Source: Limnobaculum xujianqingii (GTDB lineage Bacteria > Pseudomonadota > Gammaproteobacteria > Enterobacterales > Enterobacteriaceae). From it: a DNA stretch of 64,000 nucleotides. The stretch is from the NCBI RefSeq assembly GCF_013394855.1, contig NZ_JABMLK010000001.1, positions 2,437,501-2,501,500 of the forward strand, written 5' to 3'. Shown one piece after another: positions 13,482 to 59,821 of the stretch. Under the pieces are notes generated by a model. It worked only from the letters and a program-made list of their open reading frames with translations. It had not been told where the DNA came from and did no database searches. Each line of letters begins with the position of its first letter. The first letter of the stretch is position 1. The translations under genes and the position numbers were made by a program.

Positions 13482-13560
13482 TATGCACTCCTACAATAAA
13501 ATAAGGCAACATTACTCTGAAAAGCCCGTTTTCAGGATACTCAAATAATGTTGCTTGTCT
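13479..13560 (-). promoter_or_regulatory. Alpha-operon leader (S4 autoregulatory RNA)
   Basis: On the minus-strand transcript GCAACATTA (from 13554) pairs with TAATGTTGC (to 13506), enclosing a second stem CTGAAAA / TTTTCAG with a CGGGC loop (13517-13535). The sequence runs on to AGGAGTGCATAGTGGCCC at the rpsM start. This closely follows the E. coli alpha leader, where S4 traps the ribosome on a pseudoknot that includes the GTG start. The outer stem sequence differs from E. coli as I remember it but keeps pairing. Confidence 0.85.
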
Positions 13561-41220: not shown

Positions 41221-41280
41221 TTAACGTTAAATATCAGATGCGGTGATACACATCGCCTCTGACAGTTCAGTTTAGTCCCT

Positions 41281-41446
41281 TAAGATAGCCAATCGACGGG
41301 AGGGACGGGTGTTGGGGTCGACTTGGCGTGAGCCAACGAAGCGCCCCTAACCCGGCCAGGCCTGGCGCGCTCTACAGCTGAGTACAAACGATCTTCCGGC
41401 CGAGTACGAAGGTGATTTGGGCAACATCGTTTTTACGGCCGGAATA
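41281..41446 (-). repeat. Convergent-intergenic structured repeat, copy 1 (minus orientation)
   Basis: 166 bp. Read on the minus strand it starts TATTCCGGCCGTAAAAAC at 41446 and ends GATTGGCTATCTTA at 41281. It contains the terminal hairpin arms TTCCGGCCG/CGGCCGGAA, the GGCCTGGCCGGGTTAGGGG core, the small hairpin TTGGC-TCAC-GCCAA, and the C-rich end GTCGACCCCAACACCCGTC. It lies between convergent yheS and the LysE-type gene. The 3' half is almost identical to copy 3. Confidence 0.93.
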
Positions 41447-41519
41447 TTCACCAAAGCTGATTTAATAGCAGTTTCAGGCGACAATACACACCGCCTCTGC
41501 TGATAATGTTCTGGTTTCA

Positions 41520-42122
41520 CTACAACCAGATAAGCACCACGCAGCCTGCCGTCAAAATACCCATGGTGATATTAAAAATCGCCCACGATTTGCGACTTTG
41601 CAGCAAACGACCAATGGCAGAACCAAAACCCATCCAGATAAATCCGGCCACCAGATTTACCATAAACATGGCAATACTAATGGCTATCACTGATGCACTG
41701 TACATACTCCCTGCCAGGCTGTAGCTGGCTATCGAGCCAATGCCCATTAACCAGGCTTTAGGATTTAATGCCTGTAACAGTAACCCCTGATATAACCGAA
41801 CCGGCTGTGCTGTGCCTTTTTCAGTCTCCAGCTTTTCATAACGAGAAGTGGCTATTTTCCACGCCAGCCAAATCAGGTAGAGGCTACCCGCAATTTTCAG
41901 CGCCAGATGTAACGAAGGATAAGCAGTTACCAATGTACCAACACCCATGGCAACTAACAGCAGCAGCAATTGCATGCCAATCATAATGCCAAACATCAAC
42001 GGTAAAGAACGGGTGAAACCGAAGTTAGCAGTTGAAGAGGTGAGTAACATATTATTTGGACCCGGTGTAACTGCCGCTATCCATAGAAACATCGACATAG
42101 AAAGAAACCAGCCTAACTCCAT
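41520..42122 (-). CDS. LysE/RhtB family amino-acid exporter
   Basis: A 200-residue inner-membrane protein with six hydrophobic segments. The family signature AAVTPGPNNMLLTSST is near the N-terminus, IWLAWKIATSRYEK follows the third helix, and NPKAWLMGIGSIASY is at the fourth. This resembles the EamB (cysteine/O-acetylserine) branch of LysE exporters, but the substrate cannot be told from sequence. Together with repeat copy 1 it interrupts the yheS-yheT neighbourhood seen in E. coli, so the pair may have been inserted. Confidence 0.85.
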   Translation of the reverse strand: MELGWFLSMSMFLWIAAVTPGPNNMLLTSSTANFGFTRSLPLMFGIMIGMQLLLLLVAMGVGTLVTAYPSLHLALKIAGSLYLIWLAWKIATSRYEKLETEKGTAQPVRLYQGLLLQALNPKAWLMGIGSIASYSLAGSMYSASVIAISIAMFMVNLVAGFIWMGFGSAIGRLLQSRKSWAIFNITMGILTAGCVVLIWL

Positions 42123-42223
42123 TCTGTATAACCCTTTACCAGTGAGAGATGTTTAATCATTCCATTCAAGCTAGCAGTGTGATATTGATCGCACAAGTCC
42201 CCAAGAGTGAATTTAATTTTGTT

Positions 42224-43204
42224 ATGGATGCACAATTTCGGCCCATACCGGGCACCGGTAACCCACACATACAAACTCTGCTACCCCGGATTATCCGCAG
42301 AAAGATTAGTCTGGACCCCGTGTGGCAGCGTCTGGAACTTCCGGACGGCGATTTTATTGATGTTGCCTGGAGCGAAGACCCTCATCAGGCCAAACATAAA
42401 CCGCGTCTGATATTGTTTCATGGTTTAGAAGGCAATTTTTATAGCCCTTATGCCCATGGTTTGCTGGCGGTTTGTCGGCAAAACGGCTGGTTGGGGGCCG
42501 TTATGCATTTTCGCGGTTGTAGCGGTGAACCTAACCGTAGCCCTCGTGCTTATCATTCTGGCGAAACCAGCGATACTCGATTTTTTCTCAACTGGTTACA
42601 AGATACATTGGGAGAAGCACCTACTGCCGCAGTAGGTTACTCGCTGGGTGGCAATATGTTAGGTTGCTATCTGGCTGAAGAAGGTGACAAAGTTCCACTT
42701 GAGGCAGCAGTCATTGTCTCCGCTCCGCTGATGCTCGGTCCCTGTTCCCGTCGTTTAGAGCAAGGTCTGTCGAGAGTTTATCACCGCTATCTGCTGGGTT
42801 TACTTAAGCAAAGTACCAAACGTAAGCTCATTCGCTATCCTGGTATTATGCCGCTGCCCGGCTTATCACTGAAAAATATACGTTCTATTCGTGAGTTTGA
42901 TGATGCTCTTACAGCACCATTACATGGATTTAAAGATTCCACCGATTATTATCAAAAGTGCAGTGCTCTACCGGTATTGCATCAGGTACGCATTCCTTTG
43001 CTGATTATTCACGCCAAAGACGATCCCTTTATGTCACCGGAAGTGATTCCGGCAAAAAACAGCCTGCCCGAAAATATTGAATATCAGTTAACGGAACACG
43101 GCGGTCACGTTGGCTTTGTCAGTGGTACATGGAAAAAGCCACAGATGTGGCTGGAACATCGTATCCCTGAATGGTTAACCCGCTATCTGGAGAAAAACAA
43201 ATGA
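42224..43204 (+). CDS. yheT: YheT family alpha/beta hydrolase
   Basis: Putative hydrolase of the AB-hydrolase/YheT family, substrate unknown. From ATG 42224 it has 326 residues ([20 protein letters not shown]); earlier in-frame starts at 42149 or 42179 are possible because E. coli YheT has about 15 more N-terminal residues and the ribosome-binding site here is weak. The nucleophile Ser lies in [13 protein letters not shown], the acid in HAKDDPFM, and the His in EHGGHVGFV. It overlaps yheU by 4 bp. Confidence 0.9.
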
Positions 43205-43449
43205 TGATCCCGTGGCAGCAACTGGCTCCCGAAACGCTGGAAAGTATTATTGAATCCTTTGTTTTGCGTGAAGGCACCGATTACGGAGAACACGAAAGAT
43301 CACTACAGCAGAAAGTCGATGACGTTAAGCGTCAGCTAAAAAGCGGTCAGGTCATATTGGTTTGGTCAGAACTACATGAAACCATCAATATTATGCCCAA
43401 AGATCGTTTCAGTGATGATATGGAAGAACAACCTTATCCGGAGTATTGA
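43201..43449 (+). CDS. yheU: YheU family protein (UPF0270)
   Basis: A small 82-residue protein of unknown function: [38 protein letters not shown], then [20 protein letters not shown], all typical of the family. Start is either 43201 or 43204 (tandem ATGs). The first has a GGAG at better distance and overlaps the yheT TGA. The C-terminal [13 protein letters not shown] extension is longer than in E. coli. Confidence 0.93.
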
Positions 43450-43533
43450 TTCATCTGAATAAAATTTTATGACAGCCCTGCATCAATCCGACTATGCTCT
43501 GGTAATAATAATGAAAATTAAGGAATCAGGTTA

Positions 43534-44403
43534 ATGTCAGCAAAACATCCAATCATTGCAGTTACTGGTTCCAGTGGAGCCGGTACTACTACCACCAGTC
43601 TGGCCTTCAGGAAGATCTTTCAGCAGTTAAATTTAAGTGCCGCACGCATTGATGGTGATGCATATCATCGCTATACACGCCCGGAGATGGATGCGGAAAT
43701 CCGTAAAGCCAGAGAGCAAGGTCGCCATATCAGCTATTTTGGCCCCGAGGCCAATGACTTTGCACTGTTGGAAAACAGCTTTATTGAATACGGAAAAACC
43801 GGAAACGGACGCACACGTAAGTACTTGCATACTTATGATGAAGCGGTCCCCTATAACCAAACCCCGGGTACCTTTACTCCCTGGCAACCGTTACCTGAAA
43901 CCACAGACTTGCTGTTTTATGAAGGACTGCATGGTGGCATCGTCACCGCTAAGCATAATGTTGCCCAGCATGTCGATCTGCTGGTTGGCGTAGTTCCTAT
44001 CGTTAACCTGGAATGGATACAAAAGCTAATCCGCGACACGGTGGAGCGAGAACACTCCCGGGAAGCCGTGCTGGATTCCGTAGTTCGCTCTATGGATGAC
44101 TACATCAATTACATCACCCCACAGTTTTCCCGGACTCATATCAACTTCCAGCGCGTCCCCACCGTTGATACTTCTGATCCATTTTCTGCGAAGAGTATTC
44201 CAACGATGGACGAAAGTCTGGTAGTTATTCACTTCAGGGGGCTGACAGGCATTGATTTTCCCTATTTACTGGTCATGTTACAGGGATCGTTTATCTCCCA
44301 AACAAACACTCTGGTCATTCCGGGAGGAAAATTGGGGCTGGCAATGGAGTTAATTATCACACCATTAATACAGCAACTATTAGAAGGCAGAATATTAGAA
44401 TAG
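43534..44403 (+). CDS. prkB: Phosphoribulokinase-like protein PrkB
   Basis: P-loop kinase of the phosphoribulokinase/uridine kinase family, 289 residues. The Walker A motif is GSSGAGTTTTS (12-22). Family text includes RIDGDAYHRYTRPEMD and FYEGLHGGIVTAKHNVAQH. Enterics lack a Calvin cycle, so the physiological substrate is unknown. It lies in the yheT-yheU-prkB cluster upstream of crp. E. coli yhfA, normally between prkB and crp, is missing. Confidence 0.93.
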   Translation: MSAKHPIIAVTGSSGAGTTTTSLAFRKIFQQLNLSAARIDGDAYHRYTRPEMDAEIRKAREQGRHISYFGPEANDFALLENSFIEYGKTGNGRTRKYLHTYDEAVPYNQTPGTFTPWQPLPETTDLLFYEGLHGGIVTAKHNVAQHVDLLVGVVPIVNLEWIQKLIRDTVEREHSREAVLDSVVRSMDDYINYITPQFSRTHINFQRVPTVDTSDPFSAKSIPTMDESLVVIHFRGLTGIDFPYLLVMLQGSFISQTNTLVIPGGKLGLAMELIITPLIQQLLEGRILE

Positions 44404-44699
44404 GGAAATGAGGGTAAAACAGGCGAATAACCCGAATCAGCGCCGCTTAACCCTCATTTTAGTAAGACAACACGAGACTCTTGGCTCAACCTGTGTTAAA
44501 ATCATAGTGTGGGTACAATAGATAAATTAGAGTTCGCTCAGGCTGATGTGGCACCAGCCCACAAACACCTCTATATTCTTTTTTACATCAGCTATAATAG
44601 CGCTCACCTGGCAAGTTATATGCTTCGGGGCGGGTAAGATTTTCGGCAAGCTTCTCGCTTTGCTGTGTTAGGCAGTGACTACAAAGAGGATAACAACAA
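44404..44699 (+). promoter_or_regulatory. crp upstream region
   Basis: This 296-bp spacer holds the crp promoter. TATAAT at 44593-44598 is a good -10 without a clear -35. The transcript leader of about 95 nt ends in AAGAGGATAACAACA before the ATG. There is no coding sequence; the E. coli gene yhfA is not here. Confidence 0.6.
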
Positions 44700-45332
44700 A
44701 TGGTTCTCGGCAAACCGCAAACAGACCCTACTCTCGAATGGTTTTTATCTCATTGTCATATTCATAAATATCCATCCAAGAGCACACTTATTCACCAAGG
44801 TGAAAAAGCAGAAACTCTTTACTATATTGTAAAGGGTGCCGTAGCCGTTCTGATTAAGGATGAAGAAGGTAAAGAGATGATCCTCTCCTATCTCAATCAG
44901 GGGGATTTCATCGGAGAACTTGGCCTGTTTGAAGAAGGTCAGGAACGCAGTGCCTGGGTCAGGGCAAAAACAGCATGTGAAGTTGCTGAAATTTCATATA
45001 AGAAATTTCGCCAGCTGATTCAAGTTAACCCGGATATTTTAATGCGTTTATCCGCTCAGATGGCCAGCCGCTTACAGGTTACCTCTGAGAAAGTAGGAAG
45101 CCTTGCCTTCCTTGATGTTACGGGCCGTATCGCACAAACATTACTCAATCTGGCTAAACAACCGGATGCAATGACCCATCCAGACGGAATGCAAATCAAG
45201 ATCACCCGTCAGGAAATTGGTCAAATTGTTGGATGTTCCCGTGAAACGGTAGGACGTATTTTAAAAATGCTGGAAGATCAAAATCTGATCTCCGCTCATG
45301 GAAAGACTATCGTTGTCTACGGGACTCGTTAA
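44700..45332 (+). CDS. crp: cAMP receptor protein (catabolite activator)
   Basis: Global regulator that binds TGTGA-N6-TCACA sites when complexed with cAMP and contacts the RNA polymerase alpha C-terminal domain. The 210 residues equal E. coli CRP. cAMP pocket residues appear in [19 protein letters not shown] (Glu, Arg, Ser), and the recognition helix in [21 protein letters not shown] matching CRP site is present upstream of rspA in this window (49125-49140). Confidence 0.99.
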
Positions 45333-45337
45333 ATAAT

Positions 45338-45402
45338 AAAGAGAAGCGGATAGGTTTAGGGCCTCCAGTTGCCATATCCGCTTCCCTTTACCCGGGAGGC
45401 CT
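45338..45402 (+). promoter_or_regulatory. crp terminator-like hairpin forming a possible pseudoknot over the yhfK ribosome-binding site
   Basis: GAAGCGGATA (45343-45352) pairs perfectly with TATCCGCTTC (45375-45384). Beyond one mismatch the stem extends to 45338/45389, followed by a short pyrimidine tract. The loop contains GGCCTCC (45360-45366), perfectly complementary to GGAGGCC (45395-45401), which includes the yhfK Shine-Dalgarno GGGAGG (45394-45399). Together they could form an H-type pseudoknot that ends crp transcription and hides the yhfK start. Pairings are seen; function is inferred. Confidence 0.6.
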
Positions 45403-47487
45403 ATGTGGCGACGAGTCATTTATCATCCAGAAGTCAATTATGCTCTGCGCCAAACGTTAGTTCTCTGTTTGCCTGTCTTGCTGTTTTGGCTACTCGACGA
45501 CCTGGCAACCGGCTTTTTACTCTCCCTTGTTCCTGCCTGCTGCAGTATTGGTGGTTTGGATACTCCCCATAAACACTTTTTCAAACGGCTGGCTATTGGC
45601 GGCGGGTTGTTTGTTATCAGTAGTGTATTGTTGCAGTTTCTTCTGTTGTGGTCGGTTCCACTACCGATCTGCATGCTTATTCTGACGCTATTATTTGGCG
45701 TAACGGCAGAAATTAGTCCGCTTTATGGTCGGTTAATGCCTGCTGCATTAGTCACCGCTATTTTTACCCTCAGTATGGCGGGCAACTTACCTGTTTGGCG
45801 AGTAGCCATGTTATTTGCCATTGGCACAGTCTGGTATGGTTTGTTTATCCATCTGTGGTTTCGGCTTTGGCAAGAACAGCCCATGCGAGAATCACTTAAC
45901 CTGCTTTTCCGTCAGTTAGCCTGTTATTTTGAAGAGAAGTACAGCTTACTGACCCAGCACACCGACCCGGAGAAAGCTCTCCCTCCACTACTGTTACAAC
46001 AACAGAAAGTGATGGACATCATCTCATTGATTTATCAGCAAATTTATATGATCCCTAACCTGAAACACCCTCGTCATCGGCGATTAATTCAGGCGTTTCA
46101 AGTGGCCCTCGATTTGCAGGAACACATTACCGTCAGTTTGCACCAGCCAGTCGAGGTACAAAAACTGGTTGAACAGAGTCAGGCCGAAGCCATCATTCGT
46201 CATAATGCAAAGACCATTAGTCAACGTTTGCAGGCATTAGCCGATAATATTCTCTATCACCGCCGTTCAACGCCTTTCAATATGGATTCTGAGTTATCAG
46301 CACTGGCAAAAATTGCCCGACAGCATCCGGATAATCCGGTAGGAACTTTTTGTTATTATCATTTCAGCCGTATTGCTCACTTACTTAGCCGCCAAAAGCC
46401 TCTATACAACCGAACACTGATGCCGATGCAAAGTCGTCTTCCTTTTTTGCAGGCGCTAAAAAGTTATTGTTCCCTTAAATCTGCCGCATTCAAAAATGCC
46501 GCACGCCTTGGCCTCACATTAGCGGCAGGCGCCGGCATTGGGCTGACGCTCAATCTACCCAAGCCTTATTGGATACTAATGACCATTATGGTGGTCAGCC
46601 AGAATGGCTATAACGCGACCCGTATTCGAATTCAGCACCGCTCACTGGGCACCATGATAGGTATTCTTGCCGGAGCGGCAATTTTGCATCTCTACTACTC
46701 TCAGAACCTGATGTTGATTTTGATGTTGGTACTGACATTTTGCTCTTATCTAATAGTACGTAAGAATTATGGTATGGCGGTGATTGGGTTCACCATTACC
46801 GCGCTCTATACCTTACAGATTATCTCTAACAGTGGTATGAACTACCTGTTGCCACGTCTTATCGATACGGTTATTGGCTGTATGCTGGCATTTGCCAGTA
46901 GCCTGTGGCTGTGGCCTCAATGGCAAAGCGCACTGTTACGTAAAAATGCTCACAACGCACTGGAGACCTATCAACAGCATCTGCGGCAAATATTTAATAT
47001 GGGCACAGATGTTGCTGAACTGGCCTATACCCGAATGAGAGTTAATCAGGCTCACAATACGCTTTTTACCGCATTGAATCAGGCCATGCAGGAACCGGGA
47101 TTCAATACCCGCTATCTGGCCGATATGCGTCTTTGGGTTACCCATAGCCAGTTTTTGGTTGAGCATCTGAACGCGATAACAACCATCGCCCGAGACCAAT
47201 ATGTACTGGTTCCCGCGTTGGCACAGAAGTATTTAAACGCTTGTGAAGTCCTGATTCAGATTTGTCAGCAGCGTCTGGAATATGACGGCCCCAGCGGTGA
47301 TACCAGCATATTACCGATTGTGGAATCCGGGGATGATAAAGATGAGTTATCAGAGATCTCGATGGAGAAACATATCGAAAGGATACTGGCACACCTTACG
47401 ACAATGCATACTATTTCTTCACTAGCGTGGCAGCAGAGGCCGCATCATGGAATGTGGTTGAAGAGGAGATTGAGAGAAGAGGGGTAG
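45403..47487 (+). CDS. yhfK: YhfK (YccS/YhfK family) inner-membrane protein
   Basis: Fusaric-acid-resistance/AaeB-like membrane protein of unknown substrate, 694 residues. It has two clusters of membrane helices (about 20-150 and 365-520) separated by a helical cytoplasmic domain, with a helical C-terminal domain. It begins MWRRVIYHPEVNYALRQTLV and keeps QHTDPEKALPPLL, IARQHPDNPVGTFCYYHFSR and THSQFLVEHLNAITT, all matching YhfK. It follows crp by 70 bp and converges on argD. Confidence 0.94.
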   Translation: MWRRVIYHPEVNYALRQTLVLCLPVLLFWLLDDLATGFLLSLVPACCSIGGLDTPHKHFFKRLAIGGGLFVISSVLLQFLLLWSVPLPICMLILTLLFGVTAEISPLYGRLMPAALVTAIFTLSMAGNLPVWRVAMLFAIGTVWYGLFIHLWFRLWQEQPMRESLNLLFRQLACYFEEKYSLLTQHTDPEKALPPLLLQQQKVMDIISLIYQQIYMIPNLKHPRHRRLIQAFQVALDLQEHITVSLHQPVEVQKLVEQSQAEAIIRHNAKTISQRLQALADNILYHRRSTPFNMDSELSALAKIARQHPDNPVGTFCYYHFSRIAHLLSRQKPLYNRTLMPMQSRLPFLQALKSYCSLKSAAFKNAARLGLTLAAGAGIGLTLNLPKPYWILMTIMVVSQNGYNATRIRIQHRSLGTMIGILAGAAILHLYYSQNLMLILMLVLTFCSYLIVRKNYGMAVIGFTITALYTLQIISNSGMNYLLPRLIDTVIGCMLAFASSLWLWPQWQSALLRKNAHNALETYQQHLRQIFNMGTDVAELAYTRMRVNQAHNTLFTALNQAMQEPGFNTRYLADMRLWVTHSQFLVEHLNAITTIARDQYVLVPALAQKYLNACEVLIQICQQRLEYDGPSGDTSILPIVESGDDKDELSEISMEKHIERILAHLTTMHTISSLAWQQRPHHGMWLKRRLREEG

Positions 47488-47519
47488 CTAATAATTTTTT
47501 GAAAATTTACCTCGGTGGA

Positions 47520-47683
47520 TATTCCGGCCGTAAACACTATGTATTCATATCTTCACTGTGCTCGGCCGGAAGGGCTATGTACTCAGCTTCGGAGTGCTTC
47601 GGGCCTAGCCGGGCTACGGGCACTTCGTTGGCTTACGCCAAATCGACCCCCACGCCCGTCTTTCCCTCAGTTTAACTCTGCTA
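47520..47683 (+). repeat. Convergent-intergenic structured repeat, copy 2 (plus orientation)
   Basis: About 164 bp. It has TATTCCGGCCGTAAACAC at the left, second arm CGGCCGGAA (47563-47571), core GGGCCTAGCCGGGCTACGGG, the conserved CTTCG, hairpin TTGGC-TTAC-GCCAA (47629-47642), and a TCGACCCCCACGCCCGTC end. The last 20 bp are more diverged than in the other copies. ACGGGC and GCCCGT can pair around the small hairpin. It lies between convergent yhfK and argD. Confidence 0.92.
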
Positions 47684-47707
47684 GTTCATAACTATTTTCA
47701 GTTTCAA

Positions 47708-49261
<1,554 letters not shown>

Positions 49262-50476: not shown

Positions 50477-50490
50477 TTAAGGAAAACAAT

Positions 50491-51504: not shown

Positions 51505-51566
51505 CAGAAAACCTCTGTACCCAAACCTTTTCTGTATATATAACAACAACTGTAGAGAGCAGAAAT

Positions 51567-52985
51567 ATGACTAAAAGCATGGAATCAACAAATAATAAAC
51601 CGGAAAGAAGTACTTCTGATCTGGTTAAGGCCGCAGTTTCCGGCTGGCTGGGAACCGCACTCGAATTTATGGATTTTCAGCTGTACTCACTGGGTGCCGC
51701 GCTGGTTTTCCATGAGATTTTTTTCCCTGAGCAATCGGCAGCGATGGCGCTGATTCTGGCAATGGGAACCTACGGCGCAGGATATATTGCGCGTATCGTT
51801 GGCGCCTTTATCTTCGGCAGAATGGGCGACACCCTTGGCAGAAAAAAAGTTCTGTTTATTACCATCACCATGATGGGTATCTGTACCACGCTAATTGGCG
51901 TACTACCTACTTACGCTCAAATTGGTATCTTTGCGCCTCTATTATTGATTACTTTACGTATCATTCAGGGGCTGGGCGCAGGAGCTGAAATCTCCGGTGC
52001 AGGCACTATGCTGGCAGAATACGCCCCTAAAGGTAAGCGCGGCATTATCTCTTCACTGGTTGCTATGGGAACCAACTGCGGAACATTGAGCGCAACAGCG
52101 ATTTGGGCAGTAATGTTTGTTCTGCTCGACAGAGAACAGCTGCTTGACTGGGGATGGCGTATCCCGTTCCTGTCCAGCGTAGTTGTTATGATCTTTGCAG
52201 TTTGGTTACGGATGAACCTGAAAGAAAGCCCGGTCTTTGAGCAGGCCAGCGAAACCGCCGCTACTGAAACAGCAGCCGCGAAAAAGGCCGCCTCTGAAGA
52301 AAGCTCCATTCTTTCAATGTTCACCAGCAAATCCTTCTGGCTGGCAACCGGACTACGCTTTGGGCAGGCGGGTAACTCTGGCCTGATTCAAACCTTTCTG
52401 GCTGGTTATTTAGTACAAACACTGCTATTTGAAAAACGTATTCCAACTGATGCATTAATGATCAGTTCAATTCTTGGATTCCTGACCATTCCGCTGTTGG
52501 GCTGGCTGTCTGACAAAATTGGTCGCCGTCTGCCTTATATTGTGCTGAGCATCAGTGCCATTATCTTAGCCTACCCAATGCTATCAATGATTGTTGATAA
52601 AACCGGCGAAGTTAATGTGATTATGGCCTGCATTATCGTTATCCATAACGTTGCGGTACTGGGTCTGTTCGCCCTTGAAAACATTACTATGGCCGAAATG
52701 TTTGGCTCACGTAATCGCTTTACCCGGATGGCTATTTCTAAAGAGACTGGTGGTCTGGTCGCGGTAGGTTTTGGCCCGGTACTGGCAGGTATTTTCTGTA
52801 ACATGACCGACTCCTGGTGGCCAATCGTGGTGATGATTATTGTCTATTCATCTATCGGTTTAATCTCGGCTATCTGCATGCCTGAAGTGAAAGATCGCGA
52901 CCTGAGCGATCCAAGAGATGCGGCGGAAGTTCCAGCCCATGAGGCAGCAGAGGTTGACGTTCGCCGTGGTGCGGCAGAAGTTTAA
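51567..52985 (+). CDS. ydfJ: MFS metabolite:H+ symporter (YdfJ type)
   Basis: Twelve-helix major facilitator of the metabolite:H+ symporter (ShiA/ProP-like) family, 472 residues from ATG 51567. Visible are [18 protein letters not shown], the loop motif [31 protein letters not shown], and [11 protein letters not shown] in the second half. The neighbours suggest import of the sugar acid that RspA, RspB and YdfI process. The C-terminal tail repeats AAEV three times (about 450-472). In E. coli K-12 the homologous ydfJ is a damaged gene; here it is intact. Confidence 0.88.
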
Positions 52986-53028
52986 TCGCATCAGCGCTTA
53001 TTTATCATTTAACGGGTTAACCGACGAT

Positions 53029-54510
53029 ATGAATTTATCAAACAAATCATTACGCGATCTGCCGAAAAATGTCGTAGTGCCGAGCTACGACAGAACCAAA
53101 CTTCAGACTCGAATTGTGCATTTAGGCTTCGGCGCGTTTCACCGCGCCCACCAGGCAGTTTATGCCGATATTCTGGCATCAGAATACGGTAGCAACTGGG
53201 GATATTGTGAAGTTAACCTGATTGGTGGCGAACAGCAGATTAGTGACTTGAACGCACAGGAGCTGTTGTATTCGGTAGCTGAAATGGCTTCTGAAGGCTG
53301 GTCAGGTCGTGTGGTGGGCGTGGTTCGCCGCGCTATTCATGGTGAAGTTGATGGAATCAACAGCGTGCTGGAAGCCATGGCACAACCAGAGATTGCCATC
53401 GTTTCCATTACCATTACTGAGAAAGGCTATTGTTACCAGCCAGCTACCGGTACGTTAATTGAAGATCACCCACTGATTCAGCATGATATCGCTAACCCAT
53501 CAATGCCAAAATCAGCACCCGGCGCGATAGTTCAGGCTTTACGGTTGCGTCGTGACCGCAATCTTCCCGCTTTTAGCGTGATGTCCTGCGATAATATGCC
53601 GGAAAACGGTTACGTAACCCGTAATGTGGTTCTGGCGTTAGCCCGTATTCAGGATGCTCAACTGGCAAACTGGATTGAAACTAACGTCAGTTTCCCATCC
53701 ACGATGGTGGACCGTATTGTACCTGCCGTTACCCCGGAAACGCTGGAGAAAATAACGCAACAGCTTGGTGGAATTAACGATCCGGCAGGCGTAGCCTGCG
53801 AACCGTTCCGCCAGTGGGTGATTGAGGATAACTTTGTTAATGGTCGCCCTGAGTGGGAAAAAGCCGGGGCAGAGCTGGTAGAAGATGTGCTGCCATTTGA
53901 AGAAATGAAACTGCGTATGCTAAACGGCAGCCATTCATTTCTGGCCTATCTCGGCTATCTGGCAGGATATCAGCATATTAACGACTGTATGCAGGACGAC
54001 AACTACGCCACAGCTGCTCGCCATCTGATGCTAAGCGAGCAGGCACCAACGTTGCGTACTCAGGGTGTTGATTTGGAAGCCTATGCCGATTCATTACTTA
54101 ACCGCTATCGCAATACAGCCCTGAAGCACCGTACCTGGCAAATCGCGATGGATGGAACGCAGAAGCTGCCACAGCGGATGCTGGATTCAGTACGCTACCA
54201 TCTTGCCCATAACAGCCGCTTTGACTGTCTGGCGTTGGGGATTGCGGCCTGGATGCGCTACGTTGGTGGTATTGATGAGCAAGGGCAACCGATTGAAGTT
54301 AGCGATCCATTGCTGGAACAGTTAAAAGCACTGGTTGCTGCAAGTGATGAAGGTGCTGAACGAGTAAAAGCATTGCTGTCACTGGAAGTGGTGTTTGGTA
54401 AAGAGCTGCCGCAAAACACTCGCTTTGTTACGGTTGTGACAGAAGCCTATTTGCAGTTGTTAAAGTCTGGCGCGAAACAGAGTGTTGCTTTGTTACTTAG
54501 ACAGTTCTGA
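53029..54510 (+). CDS. ydfI: Mannitol dehydrogenase/fructuronate reductase family oxidoreductase YdfI
   Basis: Long-chain, NAD-dependent polyol dehydrogenase family (with UxuB and MtlK-like enzymes). From ATG 53029 it has 493 residues. The nucleotide-binding motif is [15 protein letters not shown] and the catalytic Lys-x(4)-Asn-x(2)-His appears in [16 protein letters not shown]. Likely substrate is D-mannonate/fructuronate or a related acid, feeding the dehydratase RspA. It is the last gene of the operon. A longer in-frame reading from 52918 would overlap the transporter gene and is not supported. Confidence 0.9.
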
Positions 54511-54528
54511 TAAATCAGCAACTGTGTA

Positions 54529-54763
54529 TATTCCGACCGTAAAAACACAGTGCTTATGTCTACACTGGTAACGGTCGGAAAACCGTCTGTACTTAGCTAC
54601 GAAGTGCGTCGGGCCTGGCCGGGTTAGGGGCCGTTACAAAACACCTTCGGTGTTTTGCCCTACGGGCCAGCGCTAGCGCTGTTCAAACAGGCTTTGCCTG
54701 TTTGTCGTTGGCTTACGCCAAGTCGACCCCAACACCCGTCCCTCCCGTCGATTAGCTATCTTA
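54529..54763 (+). repeat. Convergent-intergenic structured repeat, copy 3 (235 bp, with hairpin insertion)
   Basis: Starts TATTCCGACCGTAAAAAC. Its arms TTCCGACCG/CGGTCGGAA carry a compensatory change relative to the other copies. The core GGGCCTGGCCGGGTTAGGGG is followed by about 75 extra bp (54631-54705) made of three perfect fold-backs, then TTGGC-TTAC-GCCAA and the GTCGACCCCAACACCCGTC end running to 54763. It lies between convergent ydfI and the histidine-kinase gene. Confidence 0.93.
54637..54704 (+). repeat. Three-hairpin insertion inside repeat copy 3
   Basis: CAAAACACC-TTC-GGTGTTTTG (54637-54657), the self-complementary CAGCGCTAGCGCTG (54668-54681), and CAAACAGGC-TTT-GCCTGTTTG (54684-54704). 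All stems are perfect, the two outer ones with 9 bp and triloops. The other three copies lack this segment at the corresponding point. Confidence 0.85.
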
Positions 54764-54833
54764 GGAACTATCTGGCTTTATCATCAATCTGAAATAACCT
54801 CCCTCTCGGGTGGTTATTTTTCATCATTCAAAA

Positions 54834-56231
54834 CTAAACAACCGGAAAACTCATCACGAACCGACTGCCGTGTCCCACTTCACTTTCTACCCAAATAGTA
54901 CCGTTATGCAGCTCTATAATAGATTTCACCAAAGCCAGCCCCAGTCCGGTGCTTTCATTCGAGCTTCTGGCGCTATCGGCACAGTAAAAACGTTCGAATA
55001 TATGGTCGATGTGTAATGGTTCAATCCCTTCACCGGTATCAGTCACCGACAAAATCAGGCGATCGTTCTCTCTTTCTGCTGCCAGCGTAATTTTTCCGCC
55101 TACTGGCGTATAGCGTAATGCGTTATCAACCAGATTAGAAAATGCCCGTCGTAATAACATCACGTCAGCCTGCATGGTGTAATCGCCAGAAATTGATAAC
55201 TCAACCTGCCTCTCTTCCGCCAAACCGCTAAAGAATTCAGCCACCTGATTAAACAGAATCGAAGTTGATACCGGCTCAATATGAATAACTTCCCGAGAGT
55301 TATCTGCTCTGGCAAGAAACAGCATGGAGGAGATCATTCGGGATAACCGTTCCCCTTCTTCCATAATTTTCTCCAGCGTTTCCTGATACTCTTCCGGAGT
55401 ACGAAGCTGGGACTGTGTTACGCTGGCGGCGGCAACCATATTATTGATGGGCGCGCGGAATTCGTGAGCAATATCCGATGAGAAGCGCGATAGTTCAGCA
55501 AAAGAGCTTTCTAATCGACTAAGCATATCGTCGAAAGAAGCGGCTAACTCTTTTAGCTCTCTGGGCCATTTTTGTTGGCCTATGCGAGTATTGAGCCGTT
55601 CCACATGAATATTCTGTATTTGCTTATTCAGAATATTTAATGGTTTAAGACCACTTCGTACTATCAACCATCCAAGCAGTGCTGAAATAACCAGTGCAAT
55701 GGATACCACCACTTTCAGAATATCCAGACAAAGATCCAGAATTTCTCGTTCCTGGCTAACGTTCAGCGCTGCCTGTACTAACCATACTTGCCCGTTAGCC
55801 TGAGCTACCTTGCGGCTTCCCAGTAACATCTTGCTCTTGCGTTCTCCCTGCTTAGAGAAGGTTATTTTATAGTTAAACTTCTCGTCAGCATCGGGAAACT
55901 CCTCTGGTGAAATCGTCAATTGGGGAGATTCCGCAAACAGTTGCCCGTTCGGCATAATCACTCGCAAAAATGCCCGCTTATCCGGATCGATATTTTCAAA
56001 CCAGCGTTGCTGCCAAACCCTCAACTTACGATTATCGTGAATACTTTCAATAACACTGCTTTGCGACTGAAGAATATTATTTAATTCAAGTTGGTTCTTT
56101 TTCTTTAGCTGTTCGACCAGTGCAGTAAATACGATCACAGAGACGATTAGCACTATTATCGTCATGGCTAAAGTAAAAAAGATACTCAGCCGCTGGGTTA
56201 ACGACCAGCTACGGATATCAAACAGTTTCAT
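54834..56231 (-). CDS. Heavy-metal/oxidant-type sensor histidine kinase (CusS/HprS-like)
   Basis: A 465-residue membrane sensor kinase: TM1 (about 15-38), a periplasmic loop of about 130 residues, TM2 (about 172-192), HAMP (about 193-245), and a HisKA domain with phosphorylated His256 in SSDIAHEFRAPINNM. The ATPase domain has NLVDNALRYTP (Asn366, Asn370), DTGEGIEP and TGLGLALVKSI. The HEFRAPI box is typical of the CusS/CopS/HprS subfamily. Its start overlaps the response-regulator gene by 14 bp. The inducing signal cannot be read from sequence; copper or reactive oxygen or chlorine species are the family precedents. Confidence 0.88.
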   Translation of the reverse strand: MKLFDIRSWSLTQRLSIFFTLAMTIIVLIVSVIVFTALVEQLKKKNQLELNNILQSQSSVIESIHDNRKLRVWQQRWFENIDPDKRAFLRVIMPNGQLFAESPQLTISPEEFPDADEKFNYKITFSKQGERKSKMLLGSRKVAQANGQVWLVQAALNVSQEREILDLCLDILKVVVSIALVISALLGWLIVRSGLKPLNILNKQIQNIHVERLNTRIGQQKWPRELKELAASFDDMLSRLESSFAELSRFSSDIAHEFRAPINNMVAAASVTQSQLRTPEEYQETLEKIMEEGERLSRMISSMLFLARADNSREVIHIEPVSTSILFNQVAEFFSGLAEERQVELSISGDYTMQADVMLLRRAFSNLVDNALRYTPVGGKITLAAERENDRLILSVTDTGEGIEPLHIDHIFERFYCADSARSSNESTGLGLALVKSIIELHNGTIWVESEVGHGSRFVMSFPVV

Positions 56232-56910
56232 CTCTCAACTCCATCACGTAGCCGGCACCCCGGATAGTGTGTAACAGCTTGACCGAATAGGGATCATCCA
56301 CTTTGGTACGTAATCGGCGAATAGCCACATCTACCACATTAGTTCCGGAGTCAAAATTCATATCCCAGACCATTTCGGATATCACAATACGCGATAACAC
56401 CTCGCCGCTGCGGCGCATCAGCAAACTTAACAAAGTGAATTCTCTTGGTGTCAGCTCCAGACGTTTTCCCTGCCGATAAACCTGATGTTTCAATAGATCG
56501 AGTTCCAGGTCGGCTACTCGCAATACTGTAGATTCCGGCTGTTGTGGATCAATCTGGCGTCGCTGAATAACACGAATACGCGCCAACAGTTCACTGAAGG
56601 AAAACGGTTTTATCAGATAATCATCCGCCCCTAACTCCAGACCCCGCACCCGATCTTCAACATTATCTCTGGCGGTCAGATACATTACCGTAGTTTGCTT
56701 ACCCGCTTTACGCGCCATTTCCAAAATATCCCAACCGCTCAGGCCTGGCAGCATGACATCCAGAATCGCCAAATCATATTCATTGGTTAACAGATAGTGC
56801 AAACCATCGGGACCATTGGTCGCAATATCGACCACCATGCCTTGCTCTTTGAGCCCACGGGCGATGTATTCCGATGCCATTTTCTGATCTTCTACCAATA
56901 ATATTTTCAT
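56218..56910 (-). CDS. OmpR/PhoB-family response regulator (CusR/HprR-like)
   Basis: The 230 residues comprise a receiver domain (Glu7-Asp8, phospho-acceptor Asp51 in LAILDVMLPG, Lys in LIKPFSF) and a winged helix (LTPREFTLLSLLMRRSGEV, DVAIRRLRTKVDD). It partners the kinase encoded directly downstream. An ATTACA-N4-TGTCAT box resembling the CusR/HprR target lies upstream of the flavocytochrome gene (58454-58469), which is the likely regulated gene. Confidence 0.92.
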   Translation of the reverse strand: MKILLVEDQKMASEYIARGLKEQGMVVDIATNGPDGLHYLLTNEYDLAILDVMLPGLSGWDILEMARKAGKQTTVMYLTARDNVEDRVRGLELGADDYLIKPFSFSELLARIRVIQRRQIDPQQPESTVLRVADLELDLLKHQVYRQGKRLELTPREFTLLSLLMRRSGEVLSRIVISEMVWDMNFDSGTNVVDVAIRRLRTKVDDPYSVKLLHTIRGAGYVMELRDETV

Positions 56911-56982
56911 AGCAGTTATCCGTTTACTTTATGCATATCAACAGGATTTTCTTTTTGTATCTGACTTAATTAAAACGACCCA

Positions 56983-57012
56983 ATCAGAGCCATGATGATT
57001 AATGGCTCTGAT
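56983..57012 (-). promoter_or_regulatory. Hairpin between the flavocytochrome and response-regulator genes
   Basis: ATCAGAGCCAT (56983-56993) pairs perfectly with ATGGCTCTGAT (57002-57012) around an 8-nt loop. In the direction of transcription no T tract follows, so it could lower read-through from the flavocytochrome gene into the regulator genes or mark mRNA processing. Confidence 0.55.
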
Positions 57013-57065
57013 GATGTAAATAAATATAAAAGTCCCGCTTTCATCTGGATTGGTAAAATGAGCCA

Positions 57066-58358
57066 TCAACGCATTGAAAATATTTCATGGTGAAACTGAC
57101 TCTGACACCACCCTGAAGCGGATAAACCTTTCTTTAAATGTTCAGCAAACACTTCCGGACCACAAAAACTAACGGAATAATCGGTGCAGTTATCCATCTG
57201 GTGAATAATCTCTTCCGGCGTTAATAGTTCTCCGTCGTCCGCCAGCAATACTCGCAGCTCCACATGAGATATTCGTTTGGTTAAAAGCTGCAGGCGTTCA
57301 ATAAAAAAGGCCTCTTGCCGATTTCTGGCACAGTAGAAAAATATTACTTTTTCCAGTGGAGCTTGAGCACTTCTGCCTGACGCGAGGGATTCCAGCCAGG
57401 CAATAAATGGCGTAACCCCAATACCAGCACCGACCCATACTTGCTTCTTGTTATCCGACAGCAGAAATTTGCCGTAACCTCCTTCAACTTCAACCTGCTG
57501 CCCTGCTTGCAAATCATTTACCAGCTTAGCGGTATAGTCACCCAACGCTTTAACTGCTATTTCGATGATTTTTTGCTGTTTGTCATAATTAACCACGGTA
57601 AAAGGATGAGGGGATTCACCATCATGAAAGTTGAGATAGGCAAACTGCCCCGGCTGATACTTCATCGGCTGATCGACAGTTATCTGAAAATGAACAGTAT
57701 TGCTGGCATAACGCTCAACATTAATTACCGTACCGTTAACCTTTTTCTTATTACCAATCTGGCTGGTCAGTGACAACAGAGCACAATAACAGCCAACAAA
57801 TACCATGGCTATAACCGTAATATCATACAACAGGGTATTCATCAGATATTTTAGTGACATAACAGAATGAAGCGCTCCGGCGATAAATATGATCCCCGCC
57901 AACTTATGCAGAATCACAAATCTTTTATAACTGATGGCTTTTAACAGGCTTACCAGCGCAAAAACGACAAAAGCATAAAACGCCCACTCACCAATATCAT
58001 TAGCAATGGCATGCCAGTTAATCCCTTCCGCTTCAGGACGAAAAGGTCGTTGCACCACACCGGCTTGCGTTAGCCATTTACCGGCTTTAAATGCCAGCCA
58101 ATGGGCCGATAGCGCCACTAATGACCCAATTCCCAGATATTTATGCAGGCGATACATTTTATCCAATCCGTTCAGGCGTTTTTCAAGCCAGGCGGGGCGG
58201 ATAGCCAATAACATTGCGGCACTCATATAGCCAAAGCTAAGAATACCGGTCAATAAAATGAGCTGGCGTCGCCAGAAGAAGAAGTTGAATGTCTCTGGTA
58301 ATGAAAACAGAAAAGTCACTGCCCAAATTAAAATTAAACCACCCGTTAACCGGCGCAT
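57066..58358 (-). CDS. Ferric-reductase-like transmembrane flavocytochrome
   Basis: A 430-residue protein of the NOX/FRE superfamily. Six membrane helices (about 1-200) carry two bis-His pairs, His72/His86 and His151/His164, fitting two stacked b hemes. The cytosolic part has an FAD domain (QPGQFAYLNF, HPFTVVN at 251-257) and an NAD(P) domain (VGAGIGVTPFIAW at 309-321, ending with FCGPEVF and FHHEIF). It should move electrons from NAD(P)H across the inner membrane to Fe(III), oxygen or another acceptor. It lies upstream of the two-component genes on the same strand (155-bp gap), suggesting a dedicated stress-responsive module. Confidence 0.85.
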   Translation of the reverse strand: MRRLTGGLILIWAVTFLFSLPETFNFFFWRRQLILLTGILSFGYMSAAMLLAIRPAWLEKRLNGLDKMYRLHKYLGIGSLVALSAHWLAFKAGKWLTQAGVVQRPFRPEAEGINWHAIANDIGEWAFYAFVVFALVSLLKAISYKRFVILHKLAGIIFIAGALHSVMSLKYLMNTLLYDITVIAMVFVGCYCALLSLTSQIGNKKKVNGTVINVERYASNTVHFQITVDQPMKYQPGQFAYLNFHDGESPHPFTVVNYDKQQKIIEIAVKALGDYTAKLVNDLQAGQQVEVEGGYGKFLLSDNKKQVWVGAGIGVTPFIAWLESLASGRSAQAPLEKVIFFYCARNRQEAFFIERLQLLTKRISHVELRVLLADDGELLTPEEIIHQMDNCTDYSVSFCGPEVFAEHLKKGLSASGWCQSQFHHEIFSMR

Positions 58359-58453
58359 AAGCTATTCCCTCTATGACAATGATTGCTGGCTTAATAGCCC
58401 AATAAATTGCAAAAAGAATAACAATGTCCGAATGACAAACCGCCAATGCACAG

Positions 58454-58469
58454 ATTACATTTCTGTCAT
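58454..58469 (-). promoter_or_regulatory. CusR/HprR-type response-regulator box
   Basis: ATTACA-TTTC-TGTCAT is an imperfect palindrome with five of six positions symmetric, starting 96 bp upstream of the flavocytochrome ATG. Known boxes are ATTACA-N4-TGTAAT for HprR (YedW) and ATGACA-N4-TGTCAT for CusR; this site joins one half of each. Binding by the adjacent regulator is inferred. Confidence 0.6.
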
Positions 58470-58758
58470 TTTTATCTGCACGCAGGCAATTACATAACAC
58501 GCCAATGAATTGCTGATTTACACGCCAAAGATCAAATTAAATGGACTTTAATCATGATAGGTTCATTTATATTTAAGGCGGTTTGTGGGTGAAATACCGG
58601 TTTTATGGTCAAAAACAACCTGTTCTCTGCTAAATAACCTTTGTGCTAGTTAACTGGGTAATATATTCCAGTGAAAATATTCATTCGCTACTCAATTGGA
58701 TTTGTTAAAAATGACGCTTTTCCATAAGAATTCTGGCGAATTATCCGTGAAATTCCGC

Positions 58759-58764
58759 TATAAT
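58759..58764 (+). promoter_or_regulatory. rspR -10 hexamer
   Basis: A consensus TATAAT in CCGCTATAATGCGG, 42 bp before the rspR ATG; the -35 is poor. The start of transcription near 58771 would nearly coincide with the alternative TTG codon at 58773, which favours the ATG at 58806 as translation start. The hexamer is inside a small palindrome (CCGC/GCGG) that could be an operator. Confidence 0.55.
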
Positions 58765-58805
58765 GCGGAAAGTTGCTAACTACAGTAAGAGCTCTATCGA
58801 CATCA

Positions 58806-59495
58806 ATGACCATTGCTTACCCATTCGCTACCAGTGAGCCCGTCAATCAGCAAATCTACCGCCTGTTAAGGCAGGAGATCGTTGATTGTACGATTCGTCC
58901 GGGTACTTTACTGTCAGAAAAAGAGATCTCAACTCGCTTCAATGTATCCCGGCAGCCAGTCAGAGAAGCATTTATCAAACTGTCAGAAACCGGATTAGTC
59001 CAAATTCTGCCGCAGCGAGGCACCTTCGTAATGAAGATTTCCGCCAAGCGCGTGTCTGATGGGCGTTTTATCCGAGAAGCCGTCGAAATAGCGATTATTC
59101 GCCGGGCTGCGTTAGCTATCACTCCTGAACACTTGATGCAGTTAAAACACAATCTCCATCGTCAGGAGCTTGCTGCCAGCAATAAGCGTATCAAAGAGTT
59201 TTTAGAGCTGGATGATGAGTTTCATCGCACTTTCACCCAGATCGTCGATTGCCCAATGGCCTGGGAAACCATCGAAACCATTAAAGCCACTATGGACCGT
59301 GTACGGTTTATGAGCCTGGCCGATGTTTCTCCACCAGAGAGCCTGATTGAGCAGCACTACAAAATCTATGACGGGCTGGAAAAACGCGATCCCGATGCAG
59401 CAGAAGCCGCAATGAAACAGCACCTTGGAGAGATGATCTCCACCGTCACGACCATTTCCCAACGCAATACTGACTGGTTCGAAGCTGACGAATAA
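58806..59495 (+). CDS. rspR: GntR/FadR-family regulator RspR
   Basis: FCD-type GntR repressor, 229 residues from ATG 58806. N-terminal winged helix: VNQQIYRLLRQEIVDCTIRP, SEKEISTRFNVSRQPVREAF. C-terminal FCD ligand domain: ELDDEFHRTFTQIVDCPMAW and VSPPESLIEQHYKIYDGLEK. These segments closely match E. coli RspR (YdfH), the regulator of rspAB. The rsp structural operon ends at 54510, so the regulator is separated from it by the two-component/flavocytochrome module; in E. coli it is adjacent. A TTG at 58773 would add 11 residues. Confidence 0.9.
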   Translation: MTIAYPFATSEPVNQQIYRLLRQEIVDCTIRPGTLLSEKEISTRFNVSRQPVREAFIKLSETGLVQILPQRGTFVMKISAKRVSDGRFIREAVEIAIIRRAALAITPEHLMQLKHNLHRQELAASNKRIKEFLELDDEFHRTFTQIVDCPMAWETIETIKATMDRVRFMSLADVSPPESLIEQHYKIYDGLEKRDPDAAEAAMKQHLGEMISTVTTISQRNTDWFEADE

Positions 59496-59523
59496 CGTTT
59501 CGCTTTAGTTGGTAGGTGTAAAC

Positions 59524-59560
59524 AATAAAAAATAGCGGCATTAAGCCGCTATTTTTTATT
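59524..59560 (+). terminator. rspR terminator
   Basis: AATAAAAAATAGCGGC (59524-59539), loop ATTAA, GCCGCTATTTTTTATT (59545-59560): a perfect 16-bp stem with T tracts on both strands. Its central arms are the same as those of the hairpin at 59795-59821. Confidence 0.93.
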
Positions 59561-59588
59561 GTAAACGTATTTAATTCAGTTCTGAGAA

Positions 59589-59753
59589 TATTCCGGCCAC
59601 AATTACAAAATACCAATATCTACATTGTGCCTGGCCGGAAGACCATCTGTACTTAAGCCCCAAGCGCGTCGGGCCTAGGCTGCCTACGGGCACTTCGTTG
59701 GCTGACGCCAAGTCGACCCCCACGGCACCCTCTCCCTCCGATTAGCTACTTTT
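59589..59753 (+). repeat. Convergent-intergenic structured repeat, copy 4 (plus orientation)
   Basis: About 165 bp. It starts TATTCCGGCCACAATTAC. Arms TTCCGGCCA/TGGCCGGAA show a compensatory change at the ninth pair. The core GGGCCTAGGCTGCCTACGGG is followed by CTTCG, TTGGC-TGAC-GCCAA, and GTCGACCCCCACGGCACCC, with GATTAGCTA at the right end. It lies between convergent rspR and yjgR and is flanked by two conventional terminators. Confidence 0.92.
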
Positions 59754-59794
59754 AAAAACAAACACTGAATAACCAAACTTTGTCATTTATTTTT

Positions 59795-59821
59795 AAATAG
59801 CGGCCTCTAAGGCCGCTATTT
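59795..59821 (-). terminator. yjgR terminator
   Basis: AAATAGCGGCC (59795-59805), loop TCTAA, GGCCGCTATTT (59811-59821). In the minus direction it follows the yjgR stop by 20 bp and is trailed by an AT-rich tail (AAAAATAAATGAC), so the U tract is imperfect on that strand. Confidence 0.75.

What the first reader, a model, noticed from the sequence alone, without database searches (positions are those of the whole stretch)
41281..59753. A four-copy family of structured intergenic repeats that I cannot match to a named family
Copies at 41281-41446 (minus), 47520-47683, 54529-54763 and 59589-59753 (plus) share one plan. First comes a TATTCCGGCC arm, a variable loop of about 30-35 bp, and a GGCCGGAA arm. 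Then come GTACTYAGC, a GGGCCTRGCCGGG-like core, CTTCG, the hairpin TTGGC-NNAC-GCCAA, a C-rich TCGACCCCMACRCCCGTC, and a GATTAGCTA-like end. They are not REP/BIME or ERIC as I know those cores, and they encode no protein. Four copies within 18.5 kb of this genome suggest hundreds in the chromosome.
Basis: partly seen in the sequence, partly recalled or inferred. Interest (0 to 1): 0.85.

Follow-up and report, generated by a model that had tools for sequence, protein, structure and literature searches.

The report
Mini-transposon that inserts beside terminators
The four repeats are copies of a small mobile DNA element, present about 150 times in this Limnobaculum genome, whose ends match those of IS1182-family transposons and of the known Yersinia repeat YPAL, and which inserts at transcription-terminator hairpins and duplicates them.

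Summary
The four copies belong to a family of about 150 in the host genome (127 and 31 pattern matches, controls 7 and 0). The genus is Limnobaculum.

The missing ends show what it is. TCAGACTGCTGACAAACC...GACTTTGTCATCAATCTGA matches the ends of the Yersinia repeat YPAL/RU-2 (18 of 18 bases on the left) and of IS1182-family insertion sequences. Like these, well-kept copies lie between two copies of a terminator palindrome of 15-30 bp, while sister genomes hold single-palindrome empty sites.

So this is a non-autonomous, palindrome-seeking, IS1182-type miniature transposon. None of 4 Limnobaculum genomes has the transposase.

The interior is unlike YPAL: a covarying rod with interchangeable parts, one of them shared with YPAL-type elements of two other genera. 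G-U pairs (9) are no commoner than A-C mismatches (13), hinting at DNA-level pairing.

Verdict: a new variant of a known kind. I found no paper linking YPAL with IS1182.

The parts
41235..41261 (.). Site 1, first copy of the duplicated terminator palindrome
   Evidence: CAGATGCGGTGATACACATCGCCTCTG; one such palindrome at the empty site in G003 and G001
41262..41474 (-). Site 1, element (minus strand), ends partly worn
   Evidence: empty site in G003 and G001; an element in plus orientation at the same place in G002
41475..41499 (.). Site 1, second copy of the duplicated palindrome
   Evidence: CAGGCGACAATACACACCGCCTCTG
47520..47683 (+). Site 2, element without recognisable ends or flanking palindromes
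   Evidence: same orientation in G003; in G001 the apex is deleted
54529..54792 (+). Site 3, element; left end worn, right inverted repeat at 54772-54792 (CTGGCTTTATCATCAATCTGA)
   Evidence: G003 and G001 hold minus-strand elements in this gap
54633..54704 (+). Hairpin-chain module (four stems) inserted at the apex of the rod
   Evidence: 16 of 103 copies have it
54792..54819 (.). Terminator palindrome directly after the right end of site 3
   Evidence: AAATAACCTCCCTCTCGGGTGGTTATTT
59530..59554 (.). Site 4, first copy of the duplicated terminator palindrome
   Evidence: AAATAGCGGCATTAAGCCGCTATTT; one palindrome at the empty site in G002, where the two flank alignments overlap by 28 bp
59555..59794 (+). 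Site 4, element with worn ends
   Evidence: minus-strand elements at this place in G003 and G001
59795..59821 (.). Site 4, second copy of the duplicated palindrome
   Evidence: AAATAGCGGCCTCTAAGGCCGCTATTT

Best explanation
A family of non-autonomous miniature transposons with IS1182-family ends, a sister group of YPAL/RU-2. SHOWN: copies with both ends are mostly 244-246 bp (316-317 with the hairpin chain) and carry terminal inverted repeats; the best kept lie between direct repeats of 15-30 bp that are a terminator palindrome; sister genomes hold empty sites with one palindrome; IS1182 insertion sequences elsewhere have the same ends and the same duplicated palindromic target. INFERRED: an IS1182-type transposase, not found in the four genomes, bound the ends, cut the two strands at the two feet of a palindrome (perhaps extruded as a cruciform) and the filled-in stagger became the duplication, so its length equals the hairpin. 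INFERRED: because a terminator survives on each side, insertion harms no gene, which allowed about 150 copies, mostly after genes, and repeated insertion at one terminator in either orientation. INFERRED: the interior is a rod of stems paired at the DNA level, with helix blocks and apical hairpin modules exchanged between copies by recombination.
For: Ends: 18 of 18 bases equal to RU-2 in 2 of 4 copies tested, score 36 against a maximum of 27 in 300 shuffles; right end shares ACTTTGTCA. IS1182 elements with TCAGACTGCTGACAAA ends: G119 (transposase 493 bits to NF033551, cut-off 270; 20 places over the cut-off) and named plasmids of Salinivibrio, Klebsiella and Providencia. Target: empty sites with one palindrome at site 1 (G003, G001), site 4 (G002) and S177 (G003). 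Of 23 copies with both ends, 13 have flank repeats above the 99th percentile of mispaired flanks; in six the repeat begins exactly at both junctions and folds as one hairpin, 30, 29, 18, 17, 16-17 and 15-16 bp; three G119 elements have 24, 21 and 17 bp, Salinivibrio and Klebsiella 19 bp. Context: 56 of 103 copies between convergent genes, 4 between divergent genes. Interior: 13 of 28 pairs with two-sided changes, 234 cells; G-U 9, A-C 13, shuffled 109 and 110; mosaic S165 and chimera L090.
Against: No IS1182 transposase in 4 of 4 Limnobaculum genomes at E<=0.001, so current movement is unlikely and the link to the enzyme is by resemblance. 80 of 103 copies lack one or both recognisable ends, and 10 of the 23 with both show no clear duplication. 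One copy with exact junctions (L137, 19 bp, A+T-rich) is not a hairpin, and the Providencia IS has no duplication (its two flanking palindromes differ). IS1272, the studied IS1182 member, replaces the hairpin and makes no duplication. Site 4 elements in G000 and G003 share a helix type in opposite orientation, so inversion is not excluded there.
Confidence: 0.88

Rival explanations
1. A functional RNA element of 3' untranslated regions (stabiliser, processing or termination signal), kept because the folded RNA acts in the transcript; mobility is only its origin. Not exclusive with the best explanation.
For: Strong covariation; most copies lie after genes; 29 copies follow a gene on their own strand with the next gene also on it, against 14 the other way; passages in PMC2229807 and PMC2267715 say YPAL and ERIC repeats influence RNA stability.
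Against: G-U pairs (9) are no commoner than A-C mismatches (13), unlike an RNA of either strand. At the same gap, sister species hold elements in opposite orientation (3 of 8 simple shared sites). Terminator targeting alone explains the position.
Confidence: 0.15
2. The matched arms of the interior reflect copying rather than selection: whole rods or apical blocks, both arms together, are exchanged between copies by gene conversion or mended by hairpin-templated repair, so arms agree without a function of the structure.
For: Helix-3 types are almost decoupled from the rest of the element: 59 parsimony changes against a shuffled mean of 66.1 and minimum of 60. Mosaic S165; chimera L090 with a broken helix. 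No G-U excess.
Against: The hairpin chain keeps its stems with other letters in two other genera (R2 hits at E 1.1e-11, 3.7e-11 and 2e-8 with few broken pairs), which suggests long-term maintenance.
Confidence: 0.35
3. The ends resemble YPAL and IS1182 by convergence, and another transposase moved the family.
For: No IS1182 transposase in 4 of 4 Limnobaculum genomes; interiors of YPAL and this family do not match.
Against: 18 identical bases, matching right end, and the same unusual target with palindrome-length duplication in IS1182 elements, a YPAL-type element and this family; the hairpin chain is shared with YPAL-type elements.
Confidence: 0.07

Closest known systems
YPAL / RU-2 (Yersinia palindromic sequence, about 168 bp)
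   Same: Ends (18 of 18 left, ACTTTGTCA right). Passages in PMC2229807 report target duplications of 3-26 bp and targets that span or adjoin dyad symmetry. YPAL-type elements of two other genera carry the same hairpin-chain module. An E. coli plasmid copy 75% like RU-2 lies between two 19-bp palindromes.
   Different: Interior without significant similarity (model R1 finds none of the YPAL-type loci); 244 or 316 bp instead of about 168.
IS1182-family insertion sequences (NF033551), G119, Salinivibrio kushneri and Klebsiella plasmid elements
   Same: Same end TCAGACTGCTGACAAA and partner (TTCGTCAGCAATCTGA or similar), insertion at terminator palindromes, palindrome-length duplication.
   Different: They encode the transposase; the Limnobaculum element does not.
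IS1272 / TnSha1 of staphylococci (IS1182 family)
   Same: Targets hairpins and terminators without sequence specificity; repeated insertion at one terminator in both orientations (PMC4923244, passages).
   Different: Replaces the inverted repeat and makes no duplication (PMC5678879, abstract and section 22).
Short rod elements in Yersinia frederiksenii and Serratia proteamaculans plasmids and in genome G276
   Same: Similar rod core (84% and 80% over 69 bp; G276 74% and 72%) and TGATGACAAA-like ends in Y. frederiksenii and G276; one G276 element lies between two copies of a palindrome.
   Different: Shorter (about 100-130 bp by eye), without the TATTCCGGCC hairpin; two matches in G276.
ERIC/RU-1, RU-3 (REP-like), Rfam families
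   Same: Intergenic, structured, high copy.
   Different: No sequence similarity to the RU-1 and RU-3 sequences printed in PMC2759123; no Rfam match.

Membership tests
YPAL / RU-2 | Terminal sequences TTCAGACTGCTGACAAACCC...CACTTTGTCAATAACCTCA | tested here: met
   4 copies tested: 18 of 18 bases left in two, 15 of 15 and 15 of 17 in the others; right ACTTTGTCA in two
YPAL / RU-2 | Interior sequence | tested here: not met
   interior scores 13-20 against shuffle maxima of 22-29; R1 finds no YPAL-type locus
YPAL / RU-2 | Length of about 168 bp | tested here: not met
   18 of 23 copies with both ends are 244-246 bp
YPAL / RU-2 | Variable target duplication at dyad symmetry | tested here: met
   feature taken from passages of PMC2229807
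IS1182-type miniature transposon | Inverted repeats of an IS1182-family element | tested here: met
IS1182-type miniature transposon | Palindromic or terminator target | tested here: met
IS1182-type miniature transposon | Matching transposase in the same genome | tested here: not met
   0 of 4 Limnobaculum genomes at E<=0.001
IS1182-type miniature transposon | Movement by that transposase | not testable with these tools
   Needs an assay
ERIC (RU-1) | Sequence similarity | tested here: not met
   3 copies, both strands, at or below the shuffle mean
REP/BIME with REP-associated transposase | REP-like sequence | tested here: not met
   RU-3 scores 12-18 against shuffle maxima of 23-28
REP/BIME with REP-associated transposase | REP-associated tyrosine transposase | tested here: inconclusive
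   two PF01797 places; each beside a 402-codon frame that looks like an IS605 TnpB (recalled, not searched)
Rfam families | Match at gathering score | tested here: not met
   only Alpha_RBS in the window; nothing below E 0.5 near the repeats

The most novel reading that the evidence does not exclude
The structured interior is part of the transposition machinery. Palindrome-seeking IS1182-type miniature elements carry a rod of DNA hairpins, with interchangeable helix blocks and a hairpin-chain cassette passed between element families across Enterobacterales, that must fold (as a cruciform or single strand) for movement. They would be transposons whose cargo is DNA structure rather than sequence, and YPAL and the Limnobaculum repeat would be two lineages of one such class.
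Probability: 0.3. Interest if true: 0.75.

Novelty: new variant of a known kind. Interest (0 to 1): 0.55.

Why it matters
In the passages I read, no transposase is named for YPAL-type repeats (PMC2229807 says movement by transposases is hypothesised without experimental support). Ends, target and duplication here point to the IS1182 family, which makes the question directly testable in a laboratory strain. The family also shows how a transposon may reach about 150 copies without harm, by duplicating the terminator on which it lands, and it offers sister-genome empty sites and opposite insertions at the same gaps. A structure with matched arms but no G-U excess is a useful case for telling DNA-level from RNA-level pairing.

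Tried and rejected
Rfam: no family over the repeats. RU-1 (ERIC) and RU-3 (REP-like) sequences: no similarity. REP-associated transposase: two Y1_Tnp places that look like IS605 (by recall). Longer element with the same ends in the own genome: I fetched ten regions; their end-like matches were further copies of the repeat or lay in or near other sequence without a paired end; one search lists only its first 100 of 147 places, so this is not exhaustive. Pairing of GTGC with GCAC across the rod was looked at by eye and dropped because copies do not keep it. Simple inversion between the two palindromes was considered for the opposite orientations: at S138 and site 3 the two species hold different helix types, so separate insertion is preferred; at site 4 G000 and G003 share a type and inversion stays possible. 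Core pattern in viral contigs: 0. One copy (alternative apex, L252) against phages and E. coli genomes: no match.

Limits. The 103 copies are those in DNA held after (mostly exact cores) of about 150; 16 of them with the hairpin chain were set apart; one of the other 87 (L128) was left out of alignment A1 by hand because its left arm is degenerate. Copies with the alternative apex are not in A1. Gene context rests on a simple open-frame caller of my own. Counts are capped. The p-value treats mispaired flanks as independent and is rough. In one search one of five measures (further pair types) is reached by 42 of 500 shuffles; (hairpin chain) pairs with two-sided changes are reached by 257 of 500. 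E-values of models R1 and R2 are rough by the tool's own statement. De Gregorio et al. 2006, the YPAL paper, is not held; I know it only through passages of other papers. Papers: passages of PMC2229807, PMC2267715, PMC2759123, PMC4923244, PMC10969869, PMC2847712, PMC5193452 and PMC3733652; abstract, section list and section 22 of PMC5678879; Siguier et al. 2015 only as cited in PMC4923244. That I found no paper linking YPAL with IS1182 rests on searches; most papers listed there, including all five, were not opened.
Full report
1. THE OBSERVATION. The four copies are at the stated places and share the stated plan. Rfam has nothing for them. The host genome G000 has 4,761,652 bases in 3 contigs. 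Blastn with copy 2 finds 42 matches, with 40 of 155 candidates scored. The core pattern finds 127 places with up to 3 mismatches (64 forward, 63 reverse) against 7 for the reversed control. A second apical type finds 31 (15 and 16) against 0. So there are about 150 copies, evenly on both strands.

2. HOST AND RANGE. An exact core search of one genome per species gave 21 stretches: 11 in Leminorella grimontii, 8 in Limnobaculum allomyrinae, 2 in Pragia fontium (the host's own records may be left out there). Contig C25 of the same-genus genome G001 has 346,778 bases, the length of L. allomyrinae contig 4, so the genus is Limnobaculum. With covariance model R1, 5 of 40 genomes match: the 4 Limnobaculum genomes with 70-71 matches each (a cap) and one genome of another genus with 7.

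3. TRUE BORDERS. Two exact pairs of the end motif and its inverted partner lie 242-243 bp apart in the genome. Of 103 copies examined, 23 keep both ends (left up to 6 of 18 mismatches, right up to 7 of 19); 18 of these are 244-246 bp, two of the three with the hairpin chain are 316 and 317 bp, and the other three lie at 222, 260 and 299 bp. The intact unit is TCAGACTGCTGACAAACC ... GACTTTGTCATCAATCTGA.

4. TARGET. At S177 (G000 C1 about 2,614,700; the copy also held as L107) the element lies between two copies of a 30-bp palindrome, AGCCCCGG...CCGGGGCT, and sister genome G003 has one such palindrome and no element. Window site 1 is empty in G003 and G001, and site 4 is empty in G002, each with one palindrome where this genome has two. 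Over the 23 copies with both ends, 13 have flank repeats above the 99th percentile of mispaired flanks, and the flanks fold better than DNA about 100 bp away (p 0.0005 left, 0.017 right). In seven of the 23 the repeat begins exactly at both junctions; six of these fold as one hairpin (30, 29, 18, 17, 16-17, 15-16 bp) and one (L137, 19 bp) does not. L252, an alternative-apex copy outside the 23, has an exact 24-bp palindromic repeat one base off. Ten of the 23 show no clear repeat.

5. CONTEXT. By a simple open-frame caller, 56 of 103 copies lie between convergent genes, 29 follow a gene on their own strand with the next gene also on it, 14 the reverse, and 4 lie between divergent genes. All four window copies lie between convergent genes. 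This is what insertion at terminators predicts.

6. ORIENTATION AND TURNOVER. At eight simple sites held by both G000 and G003, orientation agrees at five (site 2, S101, S165, S243 and a deletion remnant at S116) and differs at three (sites 3, 4 and S138); S161 is complex. At site 1 G000 and G002 also differ. At S138 each species has its own element between two copies of the same palindrome, in opposite orientation and of different helix type. Repeated insertion at one terminator in both orientations is reported for the IS1182-family element TnSha1 (PMC4923244, passages).

7. THE ENDS NAME THE FAMILY. RU-2/YPAL, as printed in Table 1b of PMC2759123 (passage), begins TTCAGACTGCTGACAAACCC and ends CACTTTGTCAATAACCTCA. 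Of four copies tested, two have a left end identical over 18 bases (score 36; maximum of 300 shuffles 27); the interiors do not match. PMC2229807 (passages) says YPAL makes duplications of 3-26 bp and that its targets span or adjoin dyad symmetry. The exact 16-mer TCAGACTGCTGACAAA occurs in 9 of 295 genomes of the order, this one included, with no reversed-control match among the genomes listed. In G119 it opens an insertion sequence whose 478-codon gene scores 493 bits to NF033551, IS1182 family transposase (cut-off 270), with 20 places over the cut-off. Three of these elements, all that I checked, have exact duplications of 24, 21 and 17 bp that are palindromes. Named plasmids repeat the picture: Salinivibrio kushneri and Klebsiella pneumoniae elements have the same ends and 19-bp palindromic duplications; a Providencia element has the same ends, but its two sides are different palindromes. 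An E. coli plasmid carries a YPAL-type element (75% like RU-2) between CAGGGGCCATATGCCCCTG and CAGGGGCAAAATGCCCCTG.

8. NO RESIDENT ENZYME FOUND. None of the 4 Limnobaculum genomes has an IS1182 transposase at E<=0.001. Among ten other genomes with such ends or rods, G119 alone passes the cut-off, four have weaker or partial matches and five none. The Limnobaculum family therefore seems orphaned, which fits its worn ends.

9. THE INTERIOR. Alignment A1 (86 of the 87 copies without the chain) gives 28 pairs in five helices. Of 2400 cells 98.3% are standard pairs; 13 pairs have two-sided changes, in 234 cells. No shuffle of 500 reaches four of the five measures; 42 reach the fifth, further pair types. 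Such shuffles ignore relatedness. Helix 3 has 28 arm combinations, most of them matched, such as AGAUUCCC with GGAAAUCU and ACCUUUCC with GGAAAGCU. G-U cells are 9 and A-C cells 13, where shuffled arms give 109 and 110. An RNA of either strand should tolerate its own G-U, so pairing looks kept at the DNA level or copied as matched blocks; this is inference. Helix-3 types change 59 times on a tree of the other columns (shuffled mean 66.1, minimum 60), so blocks seem to move between copies; S165 is a mosaic and L090 a chimera with a broken helix.

10. THE HAIRPIN CHAIN. Sixteen of 103 copies have a chain of four stems of about 72 bp at the apex. Between orthologous copies it is present or absent exactly at S243; at S101 G000 has it while G003 has the alternative apex. 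A covariance model of it (R2), tried on 18 loci, finds YPAL-type elements of two other genera (L257 E 1.1e-11, L258 3.7e-11, L272 2e-8) and, weakly, a Leminorella locus (0.0012) and L265 (0.0072). L257, L258, L272 and L265 align to RU-2 around the chain. So a structured cassette is shared between element families with different interiors. The rod itself occurs in shorter elements of Yersinia and Serratia plasmids and of G276, the only other genome of 295 to match at E<=1e-5.

11. MECHANISM. Most likely: a transposase binds the shared ends, recognises a terminator palindrome by shape, cuts at its two feet on opposite strands and joins, and repair of the stagger doubles the palindrome. The geometry is inference. 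It differs from IS1272, which replaces the hairpin without duplication (PMC5678879, abstract and section 22). Why the interior stays paired is open: a need for folding in transposition, block-wise gene conversion, or a role in transcripts.

12. VERDICT. A real and abundant family with an interior not seen before in what I searched, filed as an IS1182-type miniature transposon and a sister of YPAL/RU-2, and not as YPAL itself, because interior and length fail.

Noticed in passing
window 13449-13559 (minus): Alpha operon ribosome binding site (RF00140, 103 bits), inside what looks like a ribosomal protein operon.
   Followed up: no
G003 C1 about 4,190,540 (sequence B about 66,540): A lone left end (CAGACTACTGACAAAACGGATAAATC) right after a terminator-like palindrome, perhaps the scar of a lost element; G000 has two partial elements there.
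   Followed up: no
L052 (two copies about 199 bp apart), L120, L119, L129: Tandem and inverted neighbouring copies of the repeat.
   Followed up: no
L082, L083 (G000 C1:2842015 and 2706901): Two IS605-like loci (Y1_Tnp beside a 402-codon frame); in L083 the transposase match holds a TGA stop.
   Followed up: partly
columns 158 and 192 of the alignment: Two rod positions vary together as G with A (50 rows) or C with C (32 rows), not as a standard pair; a non-standard contact or two lineages.
   Followed up: no
G228, ends of many contigs (L254, L263, L270, L275, L279, L283): Contigs break just after TCAGACTGCTGACAAAC, each after a palindrome, as if a repeated insertion sequence had stopped the assembly.
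   Followed up: no
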